DNA from: Anaerolineaceae bacterium UBA700
GTDB taxonomy: Bacteria > Chloroflexota > Anaerolineae > Anaerolineales > Anaerolineaceae
Length of the DNA: 10,933 nucleotides
Direction of reading: 5' to 3'
NCBI GenBank assembly: GCA_002298885.1
Contig: DBMK01000037.1
Location: 1 to 10,933 of the forward strand
Translations under genes and position numbers: made by a program
Shown: piece after piece, positions 52-10,933 of the stretch
How positions within the stretch are numbered: the stretch's first letter is position 1
How the letters are laid out: each line of letters starts with the position of its first letter
The notes under the pieces: model-generated
What the model saw: only the letters and a program-made list of their open reading frames with translations
Told to the model about the DNA's origin: nothing
Databases searched by the model: none

Positions 52-2805
52 TTATTCCTTTCGCCTTCGGATCCATTTGAAAATTTCCACCCCGATGAAC
101 ACCAGGCTACTCAGGCCCAGGCTGATCGCCAGATCCTCGGCGGAAAGAGCCTGCGTTTTGAACACTTGCTGCAGGAAAGGCACGTAGATCACCGCCAGTT
201 GCAGCCCCAGGGTCAGGATCACGCTGCCCAGCAGCAGCCTGTTCGAGAACAGTCCCTGCCGGAAGATCGACTCGCGGTCCGAGCGCAGCGCCAGCACGTT
301 GCCCATCTGCGAAAGGGTCACCGTGGTAAAAATCATTGTCTGCCAGCCGGGATGGCCCGTGCTCCACGCCCAATACCCCATCCCCAGCGCTACGGCCGCC
401 AGCAGCAGCCCGATCCAGAGAATATCGCGCCCCAACCCACGGCTGAAGATGCTCTCCTTGGGAGGATAGGGCGGGCGGCGCATCGAATTTGGTTCCGAGG
501 GCTCGACGGTCAGCGCCAGCCCGGGCAGCCCATCGGTCACCAGGTTGATCCACAGGATTTGCAGCGGCAGCAGGGGCAGCGGCATGCCGATCAAAGGCGC
601 CGCCAGCATCACCCATATCTCGCCGGTGTTGGAGGTGAGAGCGTACTTGATGAACTTGCGGATGTTGTCGTAGATGCGCCGCCCTTCCTCCACCGCGGCC
701 ACGATCGTGGCGAAGTTATCGTCCAGCAGCACCATGTCGGCCGCCTCCTTGGAGACGTCTGTCCCGGTGATGCCCATCGCCACCCCGATGTCCGCCTTTT
801 TCAGCGCCGGCGCGTCGTTGACTCCGTCGCCGGTCATGGCTACAATCTGGCCCTGGTTCTGCAGCGCCTGCACGATTTTGAGCTTGTGTTCCGGTGAGAC
901 CCGGGCGTAAACGGTCACGTCGGCGGCCACCTGTTCCAGCTCGGCCACGCTCAGTTTTTCCAGATCCTGCCCGGTGAGCACCCGGCCGCTCTCCTGCGTC
1001 CGCAGGATGCCCAATTCGCGGGCGATGTACGCCGCGGTAAGCGGATGGTCGCCGGTGATCATCACCGGGCGGATGCCTGCCGCCAGGGCGGTCTGAACGG
1101 CGTCCTTTACTTCGGCCCGGGCCGGATCAATCATGCCCACCAGCCCGATGAAAACCAGGTCCCGTTCCAGCGGCTCGGCTGCGTCGTCGGGGCGCGCGTT
1201 CGTGCGCAATTGGTAGGCCACCCCCAGCACGCGCATCCCGTTGCTCGCCAGGTTGTTGTTGCCCGCCATGATTCGCTGGCGCCAGGTTTCGTCCAGCGGC
1301 TGCGCCTGCCCCTCTATCCACACCTGACTGGAGATGTCCAGCAGCCCGTCGACCGCCCCCTTGGTGAATGCGATGAATCCTGCATCTTTATTCACGCGGA
1401 GCAGCTCATGCAGCACTGCGGTAGAAGACGTTTCCGCGTCCGGCATAGCGTGCACTGTGGTCATGCGTTTGCGTTCCGAATCGAACGGCAGCTCGGCCAG
1501 GCGCGGAGAATGTTTCTCCAGCTCCGCCTTCCACAGCCCGCTGCGCCCGGCGGCGATGACCAGCGCCCCTTCCGTCGGGTCGCCCACGGCGCTGAATTCG
1601 CCCGGGCTGCCCGCCGCCGGCTCCAGCGTGGCGTCGTTGCACAGCGCTCCGCCCACCAGAAGCAGTTTTATGGATGCCTGCTGATCCAGGCCTGGCAGAG
1701 GTTCGTCCTCCGGCCGGATCGACGGGCTGAAGCTGTGCACGTATTCCTTCAGGTCCATGCGCTCCCCGGCCACGTCCAGCACGGTCACGGTCATGCGGTT
1801 TTCGGTGAGCGTACCGGTCTTGTCCGAGCAGATCACCGTCACCGAACCCAGCGTTTCGACTGCCGGCAGCTTGCGGATGAGGGCTCGCCGTTTGAGCATG
1901 CGCTGGGCGCCCAGGGAAAGGGCAATCGTTACTACCGCCGGCAGCCCCTCCGGCACGGCGGCCACCGCCAGGCTGATCGCCGTCAGGAACATCAGGCGCA
2001 GCTCGTTGCCGCGCGCAATTCCCAGGACAAAAACTACCGCCACAATGATCAGCGCCGCAATTGCCAGGCCGCGCCCCACCTGTTCCAGCCGGCGCTGCAG
2101 CGGCGTGGCCTCCTGCCCCACGGATTGCAGCATGTCGGCGATTTTTCCCAATTGGGTGCGCATGCCGGTCTCGGTGACCACGGCTGCACCGCGCCCGTAG
2201 GTCACGATCGTGCCGCTGAAGACCGAGTTGGTACGGTCACTGATCCCCAGGCCTGGCTGCGGTAGGGGTTCAGTTTTCTTTTCCACCGGCTCCGATTCCC
2301 CGGTCAGCACGGCCTCCTGCACGCGTAAATTTGCGCTTTCCAGCAGCCGTCCGTCGGCTGGGACGGCGTTCCCCGCCTCCAGCAGCAGGATATCCCCCGG
2401 TACCAGCTCGCCTGCCCCGATCTCGGCGATGCGCCCATCCCGGCGCACTTTAACGTGGGGCACGGCCATTTTCTTCAGTGCTTCCATGGCTTTTTCGGCG
2501 CGGTACTCCTGGCTGAAGCCCAGGATGGTGTTCAGCACCACGATCGCCAGGATGGCGATGGCGTCCTCGCTGTCGCCCAGGAAGATCGAAATGACCGCCG
2601 AGACGATCAGGATGACCACCATGATCCCGGTCAATTGTTCCCACACGATTTTCCACGGGCTCTTGCCGCCCTTGTCGACCAGCTCGTTCCGGCCGAATTT
2701 TTCCAGCCGCTGCGCCGCTTCCGCGGCGCTCAGACCGCTCTCGCTGCCCGTTCCCAACTGCTTCAGCACGTCTTTTATTTCGGCCTGGTGCCATTCCTGT
2801 ACCAT
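52..2805 (-). CDS. P2-type cation-transporting ATPase, probable Mn2+ (Mn2+/Ca2+) exporter
   Basis: This 917-residue membrane pump is full length for the SERCA-like P-type family. In order it shows an N-terminal cation ATPase domain (about 5-75), TM1-2 (about 58-95), the actuator domain with TGES at 168-171, and TM4 with the PEGLP ion-binding turn at 285-289. The phosphorylation motif DKTGT follows with the acceptor Asp328, then nucleotide-domain motifs FDSERKRMT (441-449) and KGA (482-484), and the hinge GDGVNDAP (659-666). The C-terminal helices carry N726 and E729 (TM5), N754/T757/D758 (TM6) and Q833 (TM8). These match the SERCA ion ligands except that TM8 has Gln where SERCA has Glu. The start at 2803-2805 has an AGGTGA ribosome site at 2809-2814. 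Sequence alone would suggest Ca2+ transport. The yybP-ykoY riboswitch in the leader points to manganese export, as known for P-type ATPases such as lactococcal YoaB. The family call is firm; the ion is inferred. Confidence 0.95.
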
Positions 2806-2808
2806 AGC

Positions 2809-2814
2809 TCACCT
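2809..2814 (-). promoter_or_regulatory. Ribosome binding site of the ATPase gene
   Basis: AGGTGA on the minus strand lies 3 nt before the ATG at 2805 (6 nt from the end of AGG). It sits downstream of the leader hairpin and outside the riboswitch, so switching is more likely by termination than by blocking this site. Confidence 0.6.
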
Positions 2815-2836: not shown

Positions 2837-2871
2837 AAGCGAGACCGCCACACGAAGTGGTGGTCTCGCTT
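2837..2871 (-). terminator. Riboswitch expression-platform hairpin (putative terminator)
   Basis: On the minus strand a 15-bp stem (2857-2871 with 2837-2851, one mismatch that reads as A·C in this RNA) closes a 5-nt loop, TTCGT. It is followed by CTTTAATTAATTA, a T-rich but interrupted tract. The 5' arm contains GCGAGACC and the following CCACCA, which are also the 3' strand of the aptamer. Terminator and folded aptamer are therefore mutually exclusive, the layout expected of a switch that is ON when ligand is bound. The interrupted U-tract makes termination strength uncertain. Confidence 0.7.
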
Positions 2872-2964
2872 AACATTCGAAGAATGCTGTAAATTGCCGG
2901 GAGACCTTCGCCTCCGTCTTGACGACAATCCCTCCTGCCGAAGCAGGCAGCTACTCCCCAACCA
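2858..2964 (-). promoter_or_regulatory. yybP-ykoY family (Mn2+) riboswitch aptamer
   Basis: Read 5' to 3' on the minus strand, the leader has the family's conserved blocks in the right order. GGGGAGTAGC is at 2950-2959. A P2 hairpin CCTGC-TTCG-GCAGG follows at 2934-2947, then GTCGTCA at 2920-2926. A GGAG/CTCC hairpin leads into CCGGC, and ATTG before GTCGTCA pairs with CAAT after CCGGC, closing the second arm. A small hairpin CATTC-TTC-GAATG lies at 2874-2886, and the 3' block GCGAGACC at 2863-2870. The outer stem forms between TGGTTGG (2958-2964) and the CCACCA following GCGAGACC, with one bulge. This family is established as a Mn2+ sensor that activates exporters, including P-type ATPases. 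Length (about 107 nt), order and placement just after a promoter and before a P-type ATPase all agree. The assignment is from motif memory; a covariance-model search would settle it. Confidence 0.9.
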
Positions 2965-2969
2965 AAGAA

Positions 2970-2998
2970 AGTTTATCCGTTTTAAATCCCGCTGTCAA
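2970..2998 (-). promoter_or_regulatory. Sigma70-like promoter of the riboswitch-ATPase transcript
   Basis: On the minus strand, TTGACA (2993-2998) is a perfect -35 box and TAAACT (2970-2975) a 4/6 -10 box, 17 bp apart. The predicted start, about 7 nt downstream near 2963, falls exactly at the 5' strand of the aptamer's outer stem. That independently supports both calls. About 15 bp upstream of the -35 lie two overlapping short palindromes, TGTATATACA (3014-3023) and AAGTACTT (3023-3030). They could be an operator, but nothing identifies a regulator. Confidence 0.7.
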
Positions 2999-4267: not shown

Positions 4268-6367
4268 ATGCAAAGTGACCTGCTGCCATTTTTTGCGCCG
4301 CGTGGCGTGGCCATCATCGGCGCATCGGCAAGTCCCAATAAGCTGAGTTTTGGCATCCTGCGCAACATGACCCTTTACGGCTATACGGGTCAGGTCGCGC
4401 CGGTCAACCCGAAAGCGGACGCCATCCTCGGCCTGAAGTGCTACGCCGACGTTGCCAGCGTGCCGGACCCGGTGGACCTGGCAGTGGCGGTGCTGCCCGC
4501 CCCGGCTATCCCCGAAACGCTCGAAGCCTGCGGGCAGCGCGGCATCAAGGCCGTCACCATTATTTCCGGGGGGTTCAAAGAGGTGGGCGAGAGCGGCCTG
4601 AGCCTGGAGCGGACTTGCCTGGAGATCGCCCGGCGCTACGGCATGCGCCTGGTTGGCCCGAACTGCGTGGGCACCCTGGACCTGTACACCGGCCTGGATA
4701 CCACCTTCATCAACGGCGTGCCGGATAAGGGCGGCATTGGCTTCGTCTCCCAGTCTGGAGCGGTCGGTGGCGGGGTGGTGGACCTGCTGCGCGGCAAGAA
4801 AATCGGTTTTTCCAATTTCGCCAGCCTGGGCAACGAGGCCGACGTTACCGAATCGGACGTGATCGAATACCTGGCGCAGGACGAGCACACCCGCGTCATC
4901 GCCGTGTACGTCGAGATGATCCGCGACGGCAGACGCTTCGTCGAGGTCGCCTCGAAAGTAACCCCTTACAAACCGATCGTCCTGCTCAAGGCCGGGCGTA
5001 CCAGCGCCGGGGCGCGCGCCGTATCCTCGCACACCGGCTCCCTGGCCGGCTCCCATGCCGCCTACCAGGCCGCCTTCCAGCAGTCTGGGGTCATCGAGGT
5101 CGACTCGGTCGAAGAGCTGTTCGATATTGCCGTGGCCCTCGATTTCCAGCCCCTGCCGCGCGGCCGGCGCACCGTGCTGCTGACCAACGCCGGCGGCCCG
5201 GCCGCCCTGGCCTCGGACAGCCTGGCTGCTAACGGCCTGCTGATGGCCGATCTTTCACCTGAGACCACGCAGACCCTGCGCGCCAGCCTCAACCCGGCCG
5301 CCCAGGTCGGCAACCCGGTCGACATGCTTGGTGGGGCGGAGCCGCCCGAGTACGCCCTGGCCCTCAAGAGCGTGCTGGCCGACCCCAACGTCGACATGGC
5401 CATCCCCATCCTGGTGCCCCAGGCGCTGGTCGACCCGGTTGAGGTGGCTCGCCAGGTCAGCCTGGTGGCTTCCGGCAGCGGCAAGCCGGTGGTGGCCTGC
5501 CTGATGGGCGAGGTCAGCGTCGGCGGCGCCCGCCAGGTGCTGCACACCAACCACGTGCCCATGTATCCTTTCCCGGAGAGCACCGGCAAAGTCCTGGGCG
5601 CCCTGTGGCGCTACAGCCAATGGCGCAGCCGCCCAAACGAGCCTGAGACCGCCCTGGACAATATCCGCCCGGAACGGGCCCAGCGCGGCCTCGATCAGGC
5701 CGGAGGCGAAACCTCGCTGGCCGAGGCGCAGACGCGCCCGCTGCTCGAGGCTTATGGTATCCCCCTGGTTGCCGGCGGCTTCGCTGCCTCCGCCCCCGAG
5801 GCCGTCCAGATTGCCCGCCGGGTTGGGTTCCCGGTGGTATTGAAGGTCGTCTCACCCGATATCCTGCACAAGTCCGAGGCCGGCGGGATCAAATTGAATG
5901 TTAAGGACGAAGCGGACGTGGCACGGCAGTACCAGGCTCTCATCGACGAGGTGTCATCCCGACTGCCGGAGGCGCGCCTGCAAGGGGTGCTGGTCGAGGC
6001 CATGGCGCCCAAGGGCCAGGAGGTCATCGTGGGCATGCGCCGCGACCCCAATTTTGGCCCGCTGCTCATGTTCGGCCTGGGCGGAATTTACGTTGAGTTG
6101 TTCGGCGACGTGGCCTTCCGGGTCGCCCCGCTCACCCGTTCCGACGCCCTGTCCATGATCCAGCAGACTAAAGCCGGGCGCCTGCTCGGCGGCTTCCGCG
6201 GCCAGCCCGAGGCCGACCTGGAGGCGGTGGTAGACGCCATCCTGCGCCTCAGCCGGCTGGCCCTCGATTTTACCCAGATCGAGGAGGTCGAGATCAACCC
6301 CCTCCTCGTCTTCCCCAAAGGCCAGGGCGCCCTTGCCCTGGACTGCCGGGCAATCCTGGGTATCTAG
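4268..6367 (+). CDS. acd: ADP-forming acyl-CoA (acetyl-CoA) synthetase, fused alpha and beta subunits
   Basis: The enzyme converts an acyl-CoA + ADP + Pi to the free acid + ATP + CoA, a substrate-level phosphorylation step ending fermentation. The 699 residues match a fused alpha-beta form. The CoA-binding Rossmann domain (about 8-140) includes VAIIGAS (14-20) and GPNCVG (130-135). The succinyl-CoA-ligase-like domains carry SQSGAVGG (161-168) and SSHTGSLAG (253-261), where His255 is the expected phosphohistidine. A linker around 445-482 leads to an ATP-grasp domain (about 483-699). That domain has HKSEAGG (534-540), whose His534 probably matches the second, relay histidine of archaeal beta subunits, RDPNFGP (592-598) and EVEINPLLV (673-681). 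The gene precedes iorA and iorB on the same strand, suggesting the natural substrates are aryl-acetyl-CoAs (indoleacetyl- or phenylacetyl-CoA) rather than acetyl-CoA alone; that is inference from context. The stop codon lies inside the hairpin at 6364-6426. Related acyltransferases (Pat-type) are excluded because no acetyltransferase domain is present. Confidence 0.93.
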   Translation: MQSDLLPFFAPRGVAIIGASASPNKLSFGILRNMTLYGYTGQVAPVNPKADAILGLKCYADVASVPDPVDLAVAVLPAPAIPETLEACGQRGIKAVTIISGGFKEVGESGLSLERTCLEIARRYGMRLVGPNCVGTLDLYTGLDTTFINGVPDKGGIGFVSQSGAVGGGVVDLLRGKKIGFSNFASLGNEADVTESDVIEYLAQDEHTRVIAVYVEMIRDGRRFVEVASKVTPYKPIVLLKAGRTSAGARAVSSHTGSLAGSHAAYQAAFQQSGVIEVDSVEELFDIAVALDFQPLPRGRRTVLLTNAGGPAALASDSLAANGLLMADLSPETTQTLRASLNPAAQVGNPVDMLGGAEPPEYALALKSVLADPNVDMAIPILVPQALVDPVEVARQVSLVASGSGKPVVACLMGEVSVGGARQVLHTNHVPMYPFPESTGKVLGALWRYSQWRSRPNEPETALDNIRPERAQRGLDQAGGETSLAEAQTRPLLEAYGIPLVAGGFAASAPEAVQIARRVGFPVVLKVVSPDILHKSEAGGIKLNVKDEADVARQYQALIDEVSSRLPEARLQGVLVEAMAPKGQEVIVGMRRDPNFGPLLMFGLGGIYVELFGDVAFRVAPLTRSDALSMIQQTKAGRLLGGFRGQPEADLEAVVDAILRLSRLALDFTQIEEVEINPLLVFPKGQGALALDCRAILGI

Positions 6368-6426
6368 TTTGGTTCTTGTTGTTTTTCCGGTGCGGAGCAT
6401 CGGAAAAACAACAAAAACCAAACTAG
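6364..6426. repeat. 30-bp-arm inverted repeat between acd and iorA, spanning the acd stop codon
   Basis: Arms 6364-6393 and 6397-6426 pair across a 3-nt loop (gga) over 30 positions, with one mismatch (C·A in the plus-strand RNA) and one G·U. The TAG stop of acd (6365-6367) is in the 5' arm. In the plus-strand RNA the 5' arm is T-rich and the 3' arm is A-rich (CGGAAAAACAAC). The first bases after it are TTCTTTTG, a short T-rich stretch that could serve as a weak U-tract. It may be a terminator or an RNA-processing/stability hairpin between the cistrons. Confidence 0.85.
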
Positions 6427-6431
6427 TTCTT

Positions 6432-6460
6432 TTGCGTTTATTCGTCTACATTCGTGTTAT
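6432..6460 (+). promoter_or_regulatory. Weak candidate promoter upstream of iorA
   Basis: TTGCGT (6432-6437, 3/6) and TGTTAT (6455-6460, 4/6) are 17 bp apart, right after the hairpin, about 34 nt before the iorA start. If real, iorAB could be transcribed separately from acd. The match is poor and may be chance in an AT-rich spacer. Confidence 0.25.
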
Positions 6461-6493: not shown

Positions 6494-8332
6494 ATGAAAA
6501 GATTGTTATCCGGTAACGAAGCAGTGGCTCGCGGTGCCTGGGAGGCGGGCTGCCAGGTGGGCTCGGGTTACCCCGGCACGCCCTCCACCGAGATTATGGA
6601 GGTCTTCGCCCAGTATCCCAACGTGTACGCTGAGTGGGCGCCCAACGAAAAGGTCGCCCTGGATGCCGCCATCGGCGCGGCCTACGCCGGCCGGCGCGCC
6701 ATCTCCACTATGAAGCACGTCGGCCTCAACGTGGCTGCGGACGCCTTCTTCTATGCCGCCATGACCGGCATCGAGGCCGGGCTGGTCATCGTCTCGGCCG
6801 ACGACCCTTCGATGCACTCCTCTCAGAACGAGCAGGACAATCGCCAGTTTGCCAAATTCGCCCGCGTCCCCTGCCTGGACCCGGCCGACAGCCAGGAGGC
6901 GCACGACCTCGCCATTGCCGCCTTCGACCTTAGCGAGCAGTTCGACACGCCCGTGCTTCTGCGCATGACCACCCGCGTCTGCCACACCAGCACCCCGGTT
7001 GAGCTCGGCGAGCAGCGCCAGAACCTGCCCGAGCCGGGCAAATACCCGCGCAACCTGGGCAAATACTGCATGCTGCCGGCCAACGCCCGCAAGCGCCACC
7101 CGGTCATCGAATCCCGCATCCAGGAACTGGCCGAGTTCGCCGAGACCTTCCCTTACAACCGGGTCGAATGGCGCTCGAAATCATTGGGCATCCTCACCGG
7201 CGGCGTCGGCTACCAATATGCCCGCGAGGCCTTCCCCGAGGCCAGCGTGCTCAAGCTGGGTATGGTCTATCCCCTGCCGCAGCGCTTGATCGCCGATTTT
7301 GCCGCCCAGGTGGAAAAACTGATCGTGGTCGAGGAGCTCGATCCGTTTATCGAGGACCAGGTGCGCCTGATGGGAATTGAAGTGTACCGGCCCCAAGGGG
7401 ACTGCGTTACCTATCCCATGACCAAGTCGCTCTTCCCCATCACCGGCGAATTCGATCCGTTCACCGTCCGCTCCAGCGGCCTCAAGGCCGGCCTTATGCC
7501 CGATTCGGCGGTTCTGCCGGCTTTTGCCCCCTCGCCCGCCGACCTGCCGCAGCGCCCGCCGGTGCTGTGTCCCGGCTGCCCGCACCGCAGCACGTTCTAC
7601 GTCCTGCACAAGCTGGGCCTGCCGGTCAACGGCGACATCGGCTGCTACACGCTGGGCATCACCCCGCCGCTCAGCGCCCTGCACACCTGCGGCTGCATGG
7701 GCGCCAGCATCGGTGTGGCCCACGGCGCCGCCATCGCCGGGGATACCGAGCGCCACGTTGCTGTGATCGGTGATTCGACCTTTTTCCACACCGGCATCCC
7801 CGCCCTGATCAACGTGGCCTACAACCACAGCAACGTGATAACGGTCATCATGGATAACCGCGTCACAGGCATGACCGGCCACCAGGAAAACCCGGGCACC
7901 GGAAAGACCCTGCAGCAGAAGCCGGCCCGCGAGGTGGATATTGAAACCCTGGTGCGCGCCTGCGGTATCGAAAAGGTGCTGACCGTTCCAGCATACGACG
8001 TCGCCCTGATCGAGAAGACGCTAAAGGCCTGGCTGAAGAGCGACGAGCCCGCCGTGCTGATCACCCGCGAGGAGTGCGCCCTGCTGCCCTCGGCCCGCTC
8101 CACCTGGACGCCCCTGGAGGTGGTCAGCGACAGGTGCAACGGCTGCACGCTGTGTTTCCGCATCGGCTGCCCGGCGATCCTCAAGTCGGACGAGTTGGAT
8201 CCGCACACCCAGCGCCCGCTGGCCGAGATCGATCCCGCGCTGTGCACCGGATGCGAGATCTGCGCCCAAATCTGCCCCCGCGACGCCATCCTCTTCCGCC
8301 AGCAGATCATTAACCAGGCTAAAGAGCAGTGA
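6494..8332 (+). CDS. iorA: Indolepyruvate ferredoxin oxidoreductase, alpha subunit
   Basis: With IorB it oxidatively decarboxylates aryl 2-oxo acids (indolepyruvate, phenylpyruvate) to aryl-acetyl-CoA, reducing ferredoxin, in the cytoplasm. The 612-residue protein is normal length. The N-terminal pyrimidine-binding domain (about 3-170) starts LLSGNEAVARGAWEAG and contains GYPGTPSTEIMEVF and APNEKVALDAA. A connecting domain follows at about 225-345. The TPP-binding domain contains CPGCPHR (359-365), GDIGCYTLG (380-388), HTCGCMGASIG (397-407), and GDS (426-428) leading to DN (454-455), the diphosphate/Mg2+ motif. The C-terminal 2[4Fe-4S] ferredoxin module has all eight cysteines: C548, C551, C554, C559 (CxxCxxCxxxxCP) and C584, C587, C590, C594 (CxxCxxCxxxCP). 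The stop codon overlaps a GTG in the iorB frame. iorB follows after a 71-nt gap that holds a strong hairpin. Confidence 0.96.
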   Translation: MKRLLSGNEAVARGAWEAGCQVGSGYPGTPSTEIMEVFAQYPNVYAEWAPNEKVALDAAIGAAYAGRRAISTMKHVGLNVAADAFFYAAMTGIEAGLVIVSADDPSMHSSQNEQDNRQFAKFARVPCLDPADSQEAHDLAIAAFDLSEQFDTPVLLRMTTRVCHTSTPVELGEQRQNLPEPGKYPRNLGKYCMLPANARKRHPVIESRIQELAEFAETFPYNRVEWRSKSLGILTGGVGYQYAREAFPEASVLKLGMVYPLPQRLIADFAAQVEKLIVVEELDPFIEDQVRLMGIEVYRPQGDCVTYPMTKSLFPITGEFDPFTVRSSGLKAGLMPDSAVLPAFAPSPADLPQRPPVLCPGCPHRSTFYVLHKLGLPVNGDIGCYTLGITPPLSALHTCGCMGASIGVAHGAAIAGDTERHVAVIGDSTFFHTGIPALINVAYNHSNVITVIMDNRVTGMTGHQENPGTGKTLQQKPAREVDIETLVRACGIEKVLTVPAYDVALIEKTLKAWLKSDEPAVLITREECALLPSARSTWTPLEVVSDRCNGCTLCFRIGCPAILKSDELDPHTQRPLAEIDPALCTGCEICAQICPRDAILFRQQIINQAKEQ

Positions 8333-8333
8333 A

Positions 8334-8386
8334 TTTCACCACACACCTGCTCTGGCACCGCCCGCCAGGGCAGGTGTGTGGTGAAA
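8334..8386. repeat. 23-bp inverted repeat between iorA and iorB
   Basis: Arms 8334-8356 and 8364-8386 pair fully, with a single G·U (8351/8369), around the 7-nt loop accgccc. The stem starts 1 nt after the iorA stop and ends 17 nt before the iorB ATG. It is followed by AATAAAAAAGG rather than T residues, so it is not a classic intrinsic terminator for the plus-strand operon. Terminating here would in any case separate two subunits of one enzyme. RNase III-type processing or tuning of the IorA:IorB ratio is a possible role (inference). The same arm sequence recurs at 10912-10933. Confidence 0.88.
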
Positions 8387-8403
8387 ATAAAAAAGGCGAA
8401 TAT

Positions 8404-9003
8404 ATGAGAAATGAAGCGATTAATTTTGTTCTGGTAGGCGTTGGCGGGCAGGGGACCATATTGGCCAGCGATGTGCTGGCCGAGCTGGGGCTCAGGCTCG
8501 GCTACGACGTCAAGAAGGCCGAGGTCCACGGCATGTCGCAGCGCGGCGGCAGCGTCGTCTCCCACCTGCGCTGGGGCAAGCAGGTCTTCGCCCCGGTCAT
8601 CGGCCGCGGCGAGGCCGATTTCCTGGTGGCCTTCGAAAAGCTCGAGGCTGCCCGCTTCGTCGATTGGCTGCGCCCCGGCGGCACCGTCCTGGTCAACGCC
8701 TACAGCATCATGCCAGCCACGGTCAACGCAGGCAGCGCGATCTACCCCGCCGACGACGCCATCCGCGGCGCCCTTTCTGCCGCCACGCAGCGTTCCGTGT
8801 GGGTCGATGCGGCCGCCATCGCCGATTCGCTCGGGAATGCCAAGGTCGCCAATGTTGCCCTGCTGGGTGCCTTGTCGACCCTGCTCGAAGCAGATGTCGA
8901 AGCCTGGGACGAGGGCCTGCGCCTGCGCATCCCGGCCAAATACCTCGACCTCAACCGCCAGGCCTTCCAGGCTGGCCGCGCTGCTGTAACGAATTATATA
9001 TAA
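8404..9003 (+). CDS. iorB: Indolepyruvate ferredoxin oxidoreductase, beta subunit
   Basis: This 199-residue protein is the small subunit of IOR, corresponding to the gamma domain of pyruvate:ferredoxin oxidoreductases (PF01558-type). The N-terminal glycine-rich turn GVGGQG (12-17) and AEVHGMSQRGGSV (39-51) are the family's landmarks, and the length is typical. The start ATG at 8404 is preceded by AAGGCG about 8 nt upstream and gives the canonical N-terminus. The frame also stays open upstream to a GTG at 8329 that overlaps the iorA stop (GTGA), through the hairpin, adding 25 residues with no family resemblance. I treat that as non-coding, but coupled initiation there is possible. The last codons lie in the long inverted repeat shared with the convergent regulator gene. 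Confidence 0.95.
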   Translation: MRNEAINFVLVGVGGQGTILASDVLAELGLRLGYDVKKAEVHGMSQRGGSVVSHLRWGKQVFAPVIGRGEADFLVAFEKLEAARFVDWLRPGGTVLVNAYSIMPATVNAGSAIYPADDAIRGALSAATQRSVWVDAAAIADSLGNAKVANVALLGALSTLLEADVEAWDEGLRLRIPAKYLDLNRQAFQAGRAAVTNYI

Positions 9004-9066
9004 ATGGCGATGTGATTGGCGGCAAGCCGCCAATCTCATCGCCATTTTATTTAATTCGTTACAGCA
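8982..9066. terminator. Bidirectional terminator: 85-bp inverted repeat between convergent genes
   Basis: The inner stem 9002-9023/9026-9047 pairs 22 positions (one T·T mismatch) around a 2-nt loop. It is followed by TTTATTTAA on the plus strand and by ATTTATATATAA on the minus strand, so it fits an intrinsic terminator for iorB and for the response regulator. The pairing continues outward: 8998-9000 with 9048-9050, and 8982-8996 with 9052-9066 (15 perfect pairs), interrupted by one bulge and one mismatch. The outer arms hold the last codons and the stop codons of both genes (9001-9003 and 9059-9061). Confidence 0.85.
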
Positions 9067-10898: not shown

Positions 10899-10911
10899 TT
10901 AATTTTTCTTA

Positions 10912-10933
10912 TTTCACCACACACCTGCCCTGG
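10912..10933. repeat. Partial copy of the iorA-iorB hairpin arm, cut by the window edge
   Basis: These 22 nt match 8334-8355 at 21 of 22 positions and are identical to the reverse complement of the other arm (8365-8386). The single difference is at the G·U position of the first hairpin. The copy sits just upstream of the kinase start codon, as the other sits just upstream of iorB. Whether a second arm follows lies outside the window. Confidence 0.85.

What the first reader, a model, noticed from the sequence alone, without database searches (positions are those of the whole stretch)
2837..2998. Manganese riboswitch with an overlapping terminator in front of a P-type ATPase
Seen: promoter (2970-2998), conserved blocks GGGGAGTAGC, GTCGTCA, CCGGC and GCGAGACC in order with matching helices, then a hairpin whose 5' arm reuses the aptamer's 3' strand. 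Known: yybP-ykoY RNAs bind Mn2+ and switch on exporters. Inferred: Mn2+ stabilises the outer stem, prevents the 2837-2871 hairpin and lets transcription enter the ATPase gene. This would reassign a pump usually labelled Ca2+-transporting as a manganese exporter.
Basis: partly seen in the sequence, partly recalled or inferred. Interest (0 to 1): 0.7.

Follow-up and report, generated by a model that had tools for sequence, protein, structure and literature searches.

The report
Manganese riboswitch controlling a metal pump
The stretch is an RNA switch that very probably senses manganese and turns on a metal-exporting pump; it is a well-preserved new example of a known switch family, in a bacterial group where the standard search model misses it.

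Summary
Window 2966-2855 (minus strand) is a complete yybP-ykoY (Mn2+) aptamer with promoter, P1.1 switch helix and overlapping terminator-like hairpin (2871-2837), ahead of a P2A-type ATPase gene (2805-52). That test is uninformative: the model puts the E. coli mntP leader below its cut-off, does not list the alx leader, and passes its cut-off in 0 of 396 Anaerolineae genomes. A covariance model built here from 30 elements finds both E. coli leaders (E 1.8e-6, 1.9e-4) and 116 sites in 97 of 396 genomes. The helices covary, and the hairpin's arm overlaps and co-varies with the aptamer's last block. Beside the sites lie P-type ATPases, TerC/Alx, CaCA exchangers, MntP, GDT1 and membrane metalloproteases. 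In the closest relative's genome the same RNA precedes the ATPase, an MntP and a GDT1 protein. The pump thus very probably belongs to an Mn2+-export regulon; its ion-site residues are SERCA-like and do not settle specificity. Mn2+ riboswitches ahead of P-type ATPases are known (L. lactis, S. pneumoniae, C. difficile): new member of a known kind.

The parts
2970..2998 (-). Promoter TTGACA-17-TAAACT; expected start of the RNA about 2965-2961, at the foot of P1.1
   Evidence: 75 of 116 tested sites (window included) have a promoter of 9/12 or better within 65 nt upstream against 48 of 1160 shuffles
2855..2966 (-). yybP-ykoY (Mn2+) aptamer as matched by model R1
   Evidence: R1 77.2 bits, window in training set; RF00080 16.6 bits at 2961-2872
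2950..2959 (-). Block GGGGAGTAGC (L1 side; its first two G pair in P1.1)
   Evidence: kept by selection in the 30 training rows; GGGGAGTA found in 101 of 117 sites
2934..2947 (-). P2 hairpin CCTGC-TTCG-GCAGG
2891..2931 (-). P3 arm: P3.1 2931-2926 with 2896-2891, block GTCGTCA 2926-2920, P3.2 2915-2912 with 2903-2900, block CCGGC 2900-2896
   Evidence: covariation in P3.1 (5 of 6 pairs with changes on both sides) and P3.2 (3 of 4)
2872..2888 (-). P4 hairpin AGCATTC / GAATGTT
   Evidence: fold of transcripts ending at 2857 and 2854
2862..2869 (-). Block GCGAGACC (3' side of L1), shared by aptamer and terminator
2858..2863 (-). 3' strand of switch helix P1.1 (CCACCA), pairing with 2964-2961 and 2959-2958 around a bulged U2960
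2837..2871 (-). Terminator-like hairpin, followed by TTTAATTAATT; excludes P1.1
   Evidence: overlap tested over 117 sites
2808..2814 (-). Shine-Dalgarno-like AGGTGAG, outside the hairpin
   Evidence: read from the sequence
52..2805 (-). P2A-type cation ATPase, 917 aa

Best explanation
A transcriptional ON riboswitch of the yybP-ykoY (Mn2+) family. The RNA starts near 2965 and folds the P2/P3/P4 junction. Mn2+ docks the L1 and L3 loops and stabilises P1.1 (2964-2958 with 2863-2858). With P1.1 held, the GCGAGACC-ACC strand cannot join the 2871-2837 hairpin and polymerase reads into the ATPase gene; without Mn2+ the hairpin forms and transcription stops. The product is a P2A ATPase that very probably exports Mn2+, possibly Ca2+ too. 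Supported here by computation: aptamer, covariation, overlap of switch helix and hairpin, promoter, gene context across a class. Inferred: Mn2+ binding, direction of the switch, termination itself, Mn2+ transport.
For: Covariation: 13 of 19 pairs with changes on both sides, score 0.482 against 0.167 in shuffles and at most 0.140 when slid. Model R1 finds the E. coli mntP and alx leaders, which were not in its training set (E 1.8e-6 and 1.9e-4). 116 sites in 97 of 396 Anaerolineae genomes; nearest represented gene ATPase 52, TerC 25, CaCA 12, Zn_peptidase_2 10, M50 5, DedA 4, MntP 2, HtpX 1, GDT1 1, LTD 1, none 3. In G003, genome of the closest relative, sites lie before the ATPase, an MntP and a GDT1 protein. 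A helix of 8 bp or more on the AGACC arm with a T-rich tail at 91 of 117 sites against 0.95% of shuffles, and co-variation of the base before AGACC with its hairpin partner. Measured precedent for the mechanism: L. lactis (PMC11087558, abstract and passages).
Against: RF00080 is below its cut-off. Weak T tract, not flagged by the terminator scan. P1.1 appears in the predicted MFE only for transcripts ending at 2857 and 2854 among 15 lengths; at other lengths a competing pairing of the GGGGAG block or the hairpin prevails; in L002 no tested length showed P1.1. P1.1 of the window has a bulge. Ion-site residues look like those of a Ca2+ pump. Only 21 of the 150 listed class ATPases have a detected site upstream.
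Confidence: 0.9

Rival explanations
1. A yybP-ykoY-type RNA whose main physiological signal is not Mn2+ alone (another transition metal, Ca2+ together with Mn2+, or alkaline pH as at alx), controlling a Ca2+ or general divalent-cation pump.
For: The pump's ion-site residues are SERCA-like. A review passage says that these RNAs also bind Co2+, Cd2+ and Ni2+ (PMC11477304). The S. pneumoniae mgtA switch is described as Mn/Ca2+-sensing (PMC11434433, passage). A listing abstract ties the alx riboswitch to another signal besides Mn (PMC9603457; the abstract start is cut there).
Against: Same RNA before MntP, GDT1 and TerC/Alx genes in the class, and before MntP and GDT1 in the closest relative's genome.
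Confidence: 0.06
2. The leader acts through Rho, RNA stability or translation, or the hairpin is a constitutive attenuator; the intrinsic-terminator step is wrong.
For: Weak T tract; terminator scan negative; the mntP switch of E. coli is described as translational and Rho-linked (PMC11647493, abstract start).
Against: Start codon and Shine-Dalgarno-like sequence lie outside the hairpin; arm overlap and co-variation across the class; in L. lactis the same design is an intrinsic terminator.
Confidence: 0.03
3. A degenerate or chance resemblance without function.
For: Sub-threshold Rfam score.
Against: Intact blocks, own promoter, same arrangement in three related loci, covariation in the family.
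Confidence: 0.01

Closest known systems
Lactococcus lactis yybP Mn2+ riboswitch (before the P-type ATPase gene yoaB, called YaoB in the review)
   Same: Mn2+-stabilised P1.1 competes with an intrinsic terminator that uses its 3' strand, ON switch (PMC11087558, passages); controls a P-type ATPase that protects against Mn2+ (PMC11477304, passage)
   Different: Window: bulged P1.1, weaker T tract, P2A ATPase of another phylum; nothing measured
Streptococcus pneumoniae mgtA (caxP) riboswitch and Mn2+/Ca2+ ATPase
   Same: yybP-ykoY RNA before a P-type ATPase linked to Mn2+ export (PMC11434433, passages)
   Different: Original paper (Martin et al. 2019) not held; cited only through other papers
E. 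coli mntP and alx leaders
   Same: Matched full length by the Anaerolineae model R1
   Different: mntP is described as a translational riboswitch (PMC11647493, abstract start); other target families
Listeria LMCA1 and human SPCA1 (ATP2C1) pumps
   Same: Closest solved relatives of the ATPase, 600 and 594 bits
   Different: Window keeps NTGE in M5 where LMCA1 has NLGA and SPCA1 SIAA, and has DGLPGL in M6 where SPCA1 has DGPPAQ

Membership tests
yybP-ykoY / Mn2+ riboswitch (RF00080) | Score above the Rfam gathering cut-off (45 bits) | tested here: not met
   16.6 bits. The proven E. coli mntP leader also fails (41.6) and alx is not listed at E 0.1, so this cut-off is not a sound criterion for membership.
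yybP-ykoY / Mn2+ riboswitch (RF00080) | Conserved L1 and L3 blocks in order | tested here: met
   the identity of these blocks as the Mn2+ core is recalled
yybP-ykoY / Mn2+ riboswitch (RF00080) | P1.1, P1.2, P2, P3, P4 helices supported by covariation | tested here: met
   P1.1, P3.1 and P3.2 covary; P1.2 is paired in 30 of 30 rows with almost no variation; P2 and P4 not counted because their alignment is loose
yybP-ykoY / Mn2+ riboswitch (RF00080) | Homology with experimentally proven members | tested here: met
   R1 matches mntP (34.0 bits) and alx (26.2 bits) over all 109 positions
yybP-ykoY / Mn2+ riboswitch (RF00080) | Stands before Mn2+-export genes | tested here: met
   class census; the window's own gene is a P2A ATPase
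yybP-ykoY / Mn2+ riboswitch (RF00080) | Binds Mn2+ and changes expression | not testable with these tools
   needs in-line probing and transcription assays
Mn2+-exporting P-type ATPase | P2A ATPase fold with catalytic motifs | tested here: met
   Pfam and NCBIfam; DKTGT present
Mn2+-exporting P-type ATPase | Ion-site residues distinguishing Mn2+ from Ca2+ (PMR1 Gln in M6, recalled) | tested here: inconclusive
   Window has SERCA-like NTGE and NLVTDGLPGL (SERCA residues recalled); close relatives without a detected riboswitch have the same

The most novel reading that the evidence does not exclude
Anaerolineae run a broad Mn2+-riboswitch regulon that the present Rfam model does not see. Besides exporters it includes membrane zinc metalloproteases (Zn_peptidase_2/YugP, M50 with CBS domains, HtpX): nearest represented gene at 16 of 116 sites, followed by the ATPase at 8 of these 16. 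Mn2+ overload would thus induce both export and membrane-protein quality control. Many of the controlled P2A ATPases carry Lys at the SERCA E771 position (12 of 23 with, 2 of 21 without a detected site; non-random sample, largely one clade), which could mark a single-site Mn2+ pump subclass; the window's own pump is not of that subclass.
Probability: 0.45. Interest if true: 0.55.

Novelty: new member of a known kind. Interest (0 to 1): 0.38.

Why it matters
It ties a pump that annotation models would call Ca2+-transporting to manganese export in a phylum known mostly from metagenomes. It also shows that absence of an RF00080 hit is not evidence of absence: 97 of 396 Anaerolineae genomes have sites by model R1 and none reaches the Rfam cut-off. 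The class-wide regulon gives testable Mn2+ links for metalloproteases and exchangers.

Tried and rejected
A lax terminator test (arm paired, dG at most -12) was uninformative: 115 of 117 sites but also 276 of 585 shuffles pass; the stricter test replaced it. Rfam microRNA and flavivirus matches in the window are all below their cut-offs; those at 6358-6437, 8314-8398 and 8988-9060 lie on intergenic palindromes and one (2870-2835) on the terminator hairpin; rejected as chance. Minimum-energy folding alone was not relied on: partial transcripts mostly show a competing pairing. Ion-site residues do not separate Mn2+ from Ca2+ pumps; its 'without' set was picked mainly by similarity to the window and 'without' means only that R1 with strict filters listed no site, so the Lys count is biased; the Fisher p of 0.0034 ignores kinship. 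Of 31 pattern loci (L013-L043) I dropped L017 (looks like a chance match) and L034 (ACGAGACC failed my extraction pattern) before building R1; pattern places without a locus were not used. Of the 20 RF00080 places at E 0.01 or better, 16 are R1 sites and 4 are not, by my comparison. R1's E-values rest on a short calibration. The weakest site (L160, 29.3 bits) lacks AGAC and is probably false; two further sites without a gene hit lie near contig ends.

Papers: Anaerolineae plus yybP-ykoY, none held; Chloroflexi plus yybP-ykoY, one (passages). A wider search for Chloroflexota with the riboswitch listed 12 of 4,201 papers, none of the 12 holding either riboswitch term. The protease link was sought in one search: 20 of 169 papers listed, and the only listed one with yybP-ykoY was the V. 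parahaemolyticus paper, whose passages name yrbG under this riboswitch in V. vulnificus, so an exchanger target is not new (yrbG as a CaCA member is recalled). One review passage calls Mn2+ riboswitches 'OFF' switches, against the ON mechanism measured in L. lactis. Searches added nothing that I used.

Full report
What is there. On the minus strand, between a phosphoesterase gene (4094-3066) and a P2A-type ATPase gene (2805-52), lies a 260-nt intergenic stretch. It has one promoter-like site (2998-2970), the four yybP-ykoY blocks in order, matching helices, and a 35-nt hairpin whose 5' arm contains the last block. The start codon and a Shine-Dalgarno-like sequence lie outside the hairpin, so the anatomy points to control of transcription rather than translation.

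The Rfam test and why it misleads. RF00080 finds 2961-2872 on the right strand at 16.6 bits; E is 0.35 for the whole window and 0.0083 for 261 bases; the cut-off is 45. The model has 177 positions, and in the printed alignment the match ends before the GCGAGACC block. As controls, the E. coli mntP leader scores 41.6 and the alx leader is not listed at E 0.1. Over 396 Anaerolineae genomes the model reaches its cut-off in none and E 0.01 in 20; among the 14 control genomes it is over the cut-off in 2.

Relatives. The ATPase finds 12 loci, seven of them from records titled Anaerolineae, Anaerolineales, Ardenticatenia, Chloroflexi or Chloroflexota, the rest cyanobacteria, WOR-3 and one actinobacterium-like MAG. 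Eleven have upstream DNA; in three (L001, L002, L008) the same element stands before the gene with the same overlap between GC(G/A)AGACC and a downstream hairpin. None of the three reached E 0.5 with RF00080. A three-block DNA pattern matched 40 of 396 genomes; the same pattern read backwards matched 10 genomes by my count of the listing, so part of the 40 are chance.

Structure. Thirty elements (the window and 29 loci) were aligned; the loop blocks are invariant partly because the pattern and my extraction selected them. The helices were not selected. 13 of 19 pairs have changes on both sides (shuffles 9.6), 99 cells change on both sides (shuffles 27.9), the covariation score is 0.482 (shuffles 0.167), and it falls to 0.140 or less when partners are slid. 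Outer P1.1 positions are often unpaired in this register (helix 69.5% paired). The two P1.1 pairs next to L1 are paired in all 30 rows (one G:U); in L. lactis the pairs G5/G6 with C95/C96 carry the Mn2+ effect on pausing (PMC11087558, passages; the correspondence of positions is my reading).

A profile that works. R1, built from these 30, matches both E. coli leaders full length, a test outside its training set, and 116 sites in 97 of 396 genomes (strict filters). All 116 sites were matched by tblastn with ten representative proteins, over at most 2.3 kb downstream (1.5 kb or less for many). Nearest hits: ATPase 52, TerC 25, CaCA 12, Zn_peptidase_2 10, M50 5, DedA 4, MntP 2, HtpX 1, GDT1 1, LTD 1, none 3. 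The nearest hit is not always the first gene: in L118, for example, another ORF precedes the ATPase. Family names of the representatives come from Pfam and NCBIfam; the TerC representative exceeds the cut-off of the NCBIfam model R_switched_Alx. The MntP proteins match Pfam Mntp well above its cut-off but stay below the NCBIfam MntP cut-off. In G003, the genome of the closest relative (76% identical ATPase), the RNA stands before the ATPase, an MntP and a GDT1 protein. This is the best argument that the window's pump is part of an Mn2+-export regulon.

Promoters and switch. 75 of 116 tested sites have a promoter of 9/12 or better within 65 nt upstream, against 48 of 1160 shuffles. At 91 of 117 sites an uninterrupted helix of 8 bp or more uses the AGACC arm and has 6 or more T in the 12 nt at its end, against 0.95% of shuffled controls; the window has 10 bp and 7 T. 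Where such a helix was found (98 sites), the base before AGACC and its hairpin partner go together: G:C 49, A:T 26, G:T 19, A:C 0, four others. Aptamer block and terminator arm therefore evolve together. With transcripts lengthened by three nucleotides at a time (15 lengths), the MFE shows P1.1 only for ends at 2857 and 2854 and the hairpin later; at other lengths a competing pairing of the GGGGAG block with the P4 region dominates. Among three relatives, L001 and L008 show P1.1 at some tested lengths and L002 at none. On the leader ending at 2837, enforced P1.1 and P1.2 give -41.8 against -62.6 kcal/mol for the hairpin state (all). So the choice must be made during transcription, as in L. lactis; energies without Mn2+ cannot prove it.

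The pump. The best NCBIfam score is the PMR1-type Ca2+ model, 741.7 bits, below its cut-off of 798.3; the PMCA-type Ca2+ model is just over its own (509.2 against 507.05). The closest solved relatives are Listeria LMCA1 and human SPCA1. M4 PEG, M5 NTGE and M6 NLVTD are as in SERCA (recalled), and close relatives without a detected site have the same. In a tree of 44 ATPases the window, L008, L161 and L162 form a starred set, all with the riboswitch; the label changes 8 times at least (7 forced by starred branches) and is clustered (shuffled mean 14.9, 0 of 500 as low). Of the 150 class ATPases listed (a capped list) 21 have an R1 site within 1.5 kb upstream. The link is frequent, far above chance, and far from universal.

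Against the literature. Mn2+ riboswitches ahead of P-type ATPases are in print for L. lactis and, as a prediction, C. difficile (PMC11477304, passages) and for S. pneumoniae (PMC11434433, passages). The P1.1/terminator mechanism is measured in L. lactis (PMC11087558, abstract and passages). [quoted passage not shown] P-type ATPases, MntP and UPF0016 are named among the main Mn efflux systems, and yrbG is placed under this riboswitch in V. vulnificus (PMC13274385, passages). Hence a new member of a known kind, with a class-wide regulon and the protease targets as the less expected part.

Noticed in passing
L078, L084, L094, L100, L106, L141, L144, L145, L146, L151 (Zn_peptidase_2); L032, L097, L099, L105, L139 (M50); L085 (HtpX): Membrane zinc metalloproteases are the nearest represented gene after the Mn2+ riboswitch at 16 of 116 sites, followed by the ATPase at 8 of these.
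   Followed up: partly
L055, L057-L061, L067, L108, L111, L119, L123, L153: CaCA exchangers (Na_Ca_ex; NCBIfam calcium/sodium antiporter for the representative) are the nearest represented gene at 12 of 116 sites; in L108 and L111 two such genes follow one site.
   Followed up: partly
G334:C538 (L120, L147): Two riboswitch sites on one strand about 1.2 kb apart, each followed by a TerC gene.
   Followed up: no
L022, L066, L081, L086: DedA-type genes directly after the riboswitch, each with a P-type ATPase further down.
   Followed up: no
L164-L175: A mostly riboswitch-linked ATPase subgroup has Lys in M5 (GN.GK) where the window and SERCA have Glu; L193 and L195 share it without a detected site.
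   Followed up: partly
L002 2676-2920: A 41-codon-range small ORF and a second hairpin with a T run lie between the riboswitch and the ATPase (read).
   Followed up: no
window 8334-8386 and 10911-10933: A palindrome between the two indolepyruvate oxidoreductase genes recurs in part at the window's end (96% over 23 nt): perhaps a repeated extragenic palindrome.
   Followed up: no
window 6364-6426 and 8982-9066: Long intergenic inverted repeats, probably terminators; they draw spurious microRNA matches in Rfam.
   Followed up: no
Rfam RF00080, copy used here: The model under-scores or misses proven members (mntP 41.6 of 45 bits, alx not listed) and reaches its cut-off in none of 396 Anaerolineae genomes.
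   Followed up: yes
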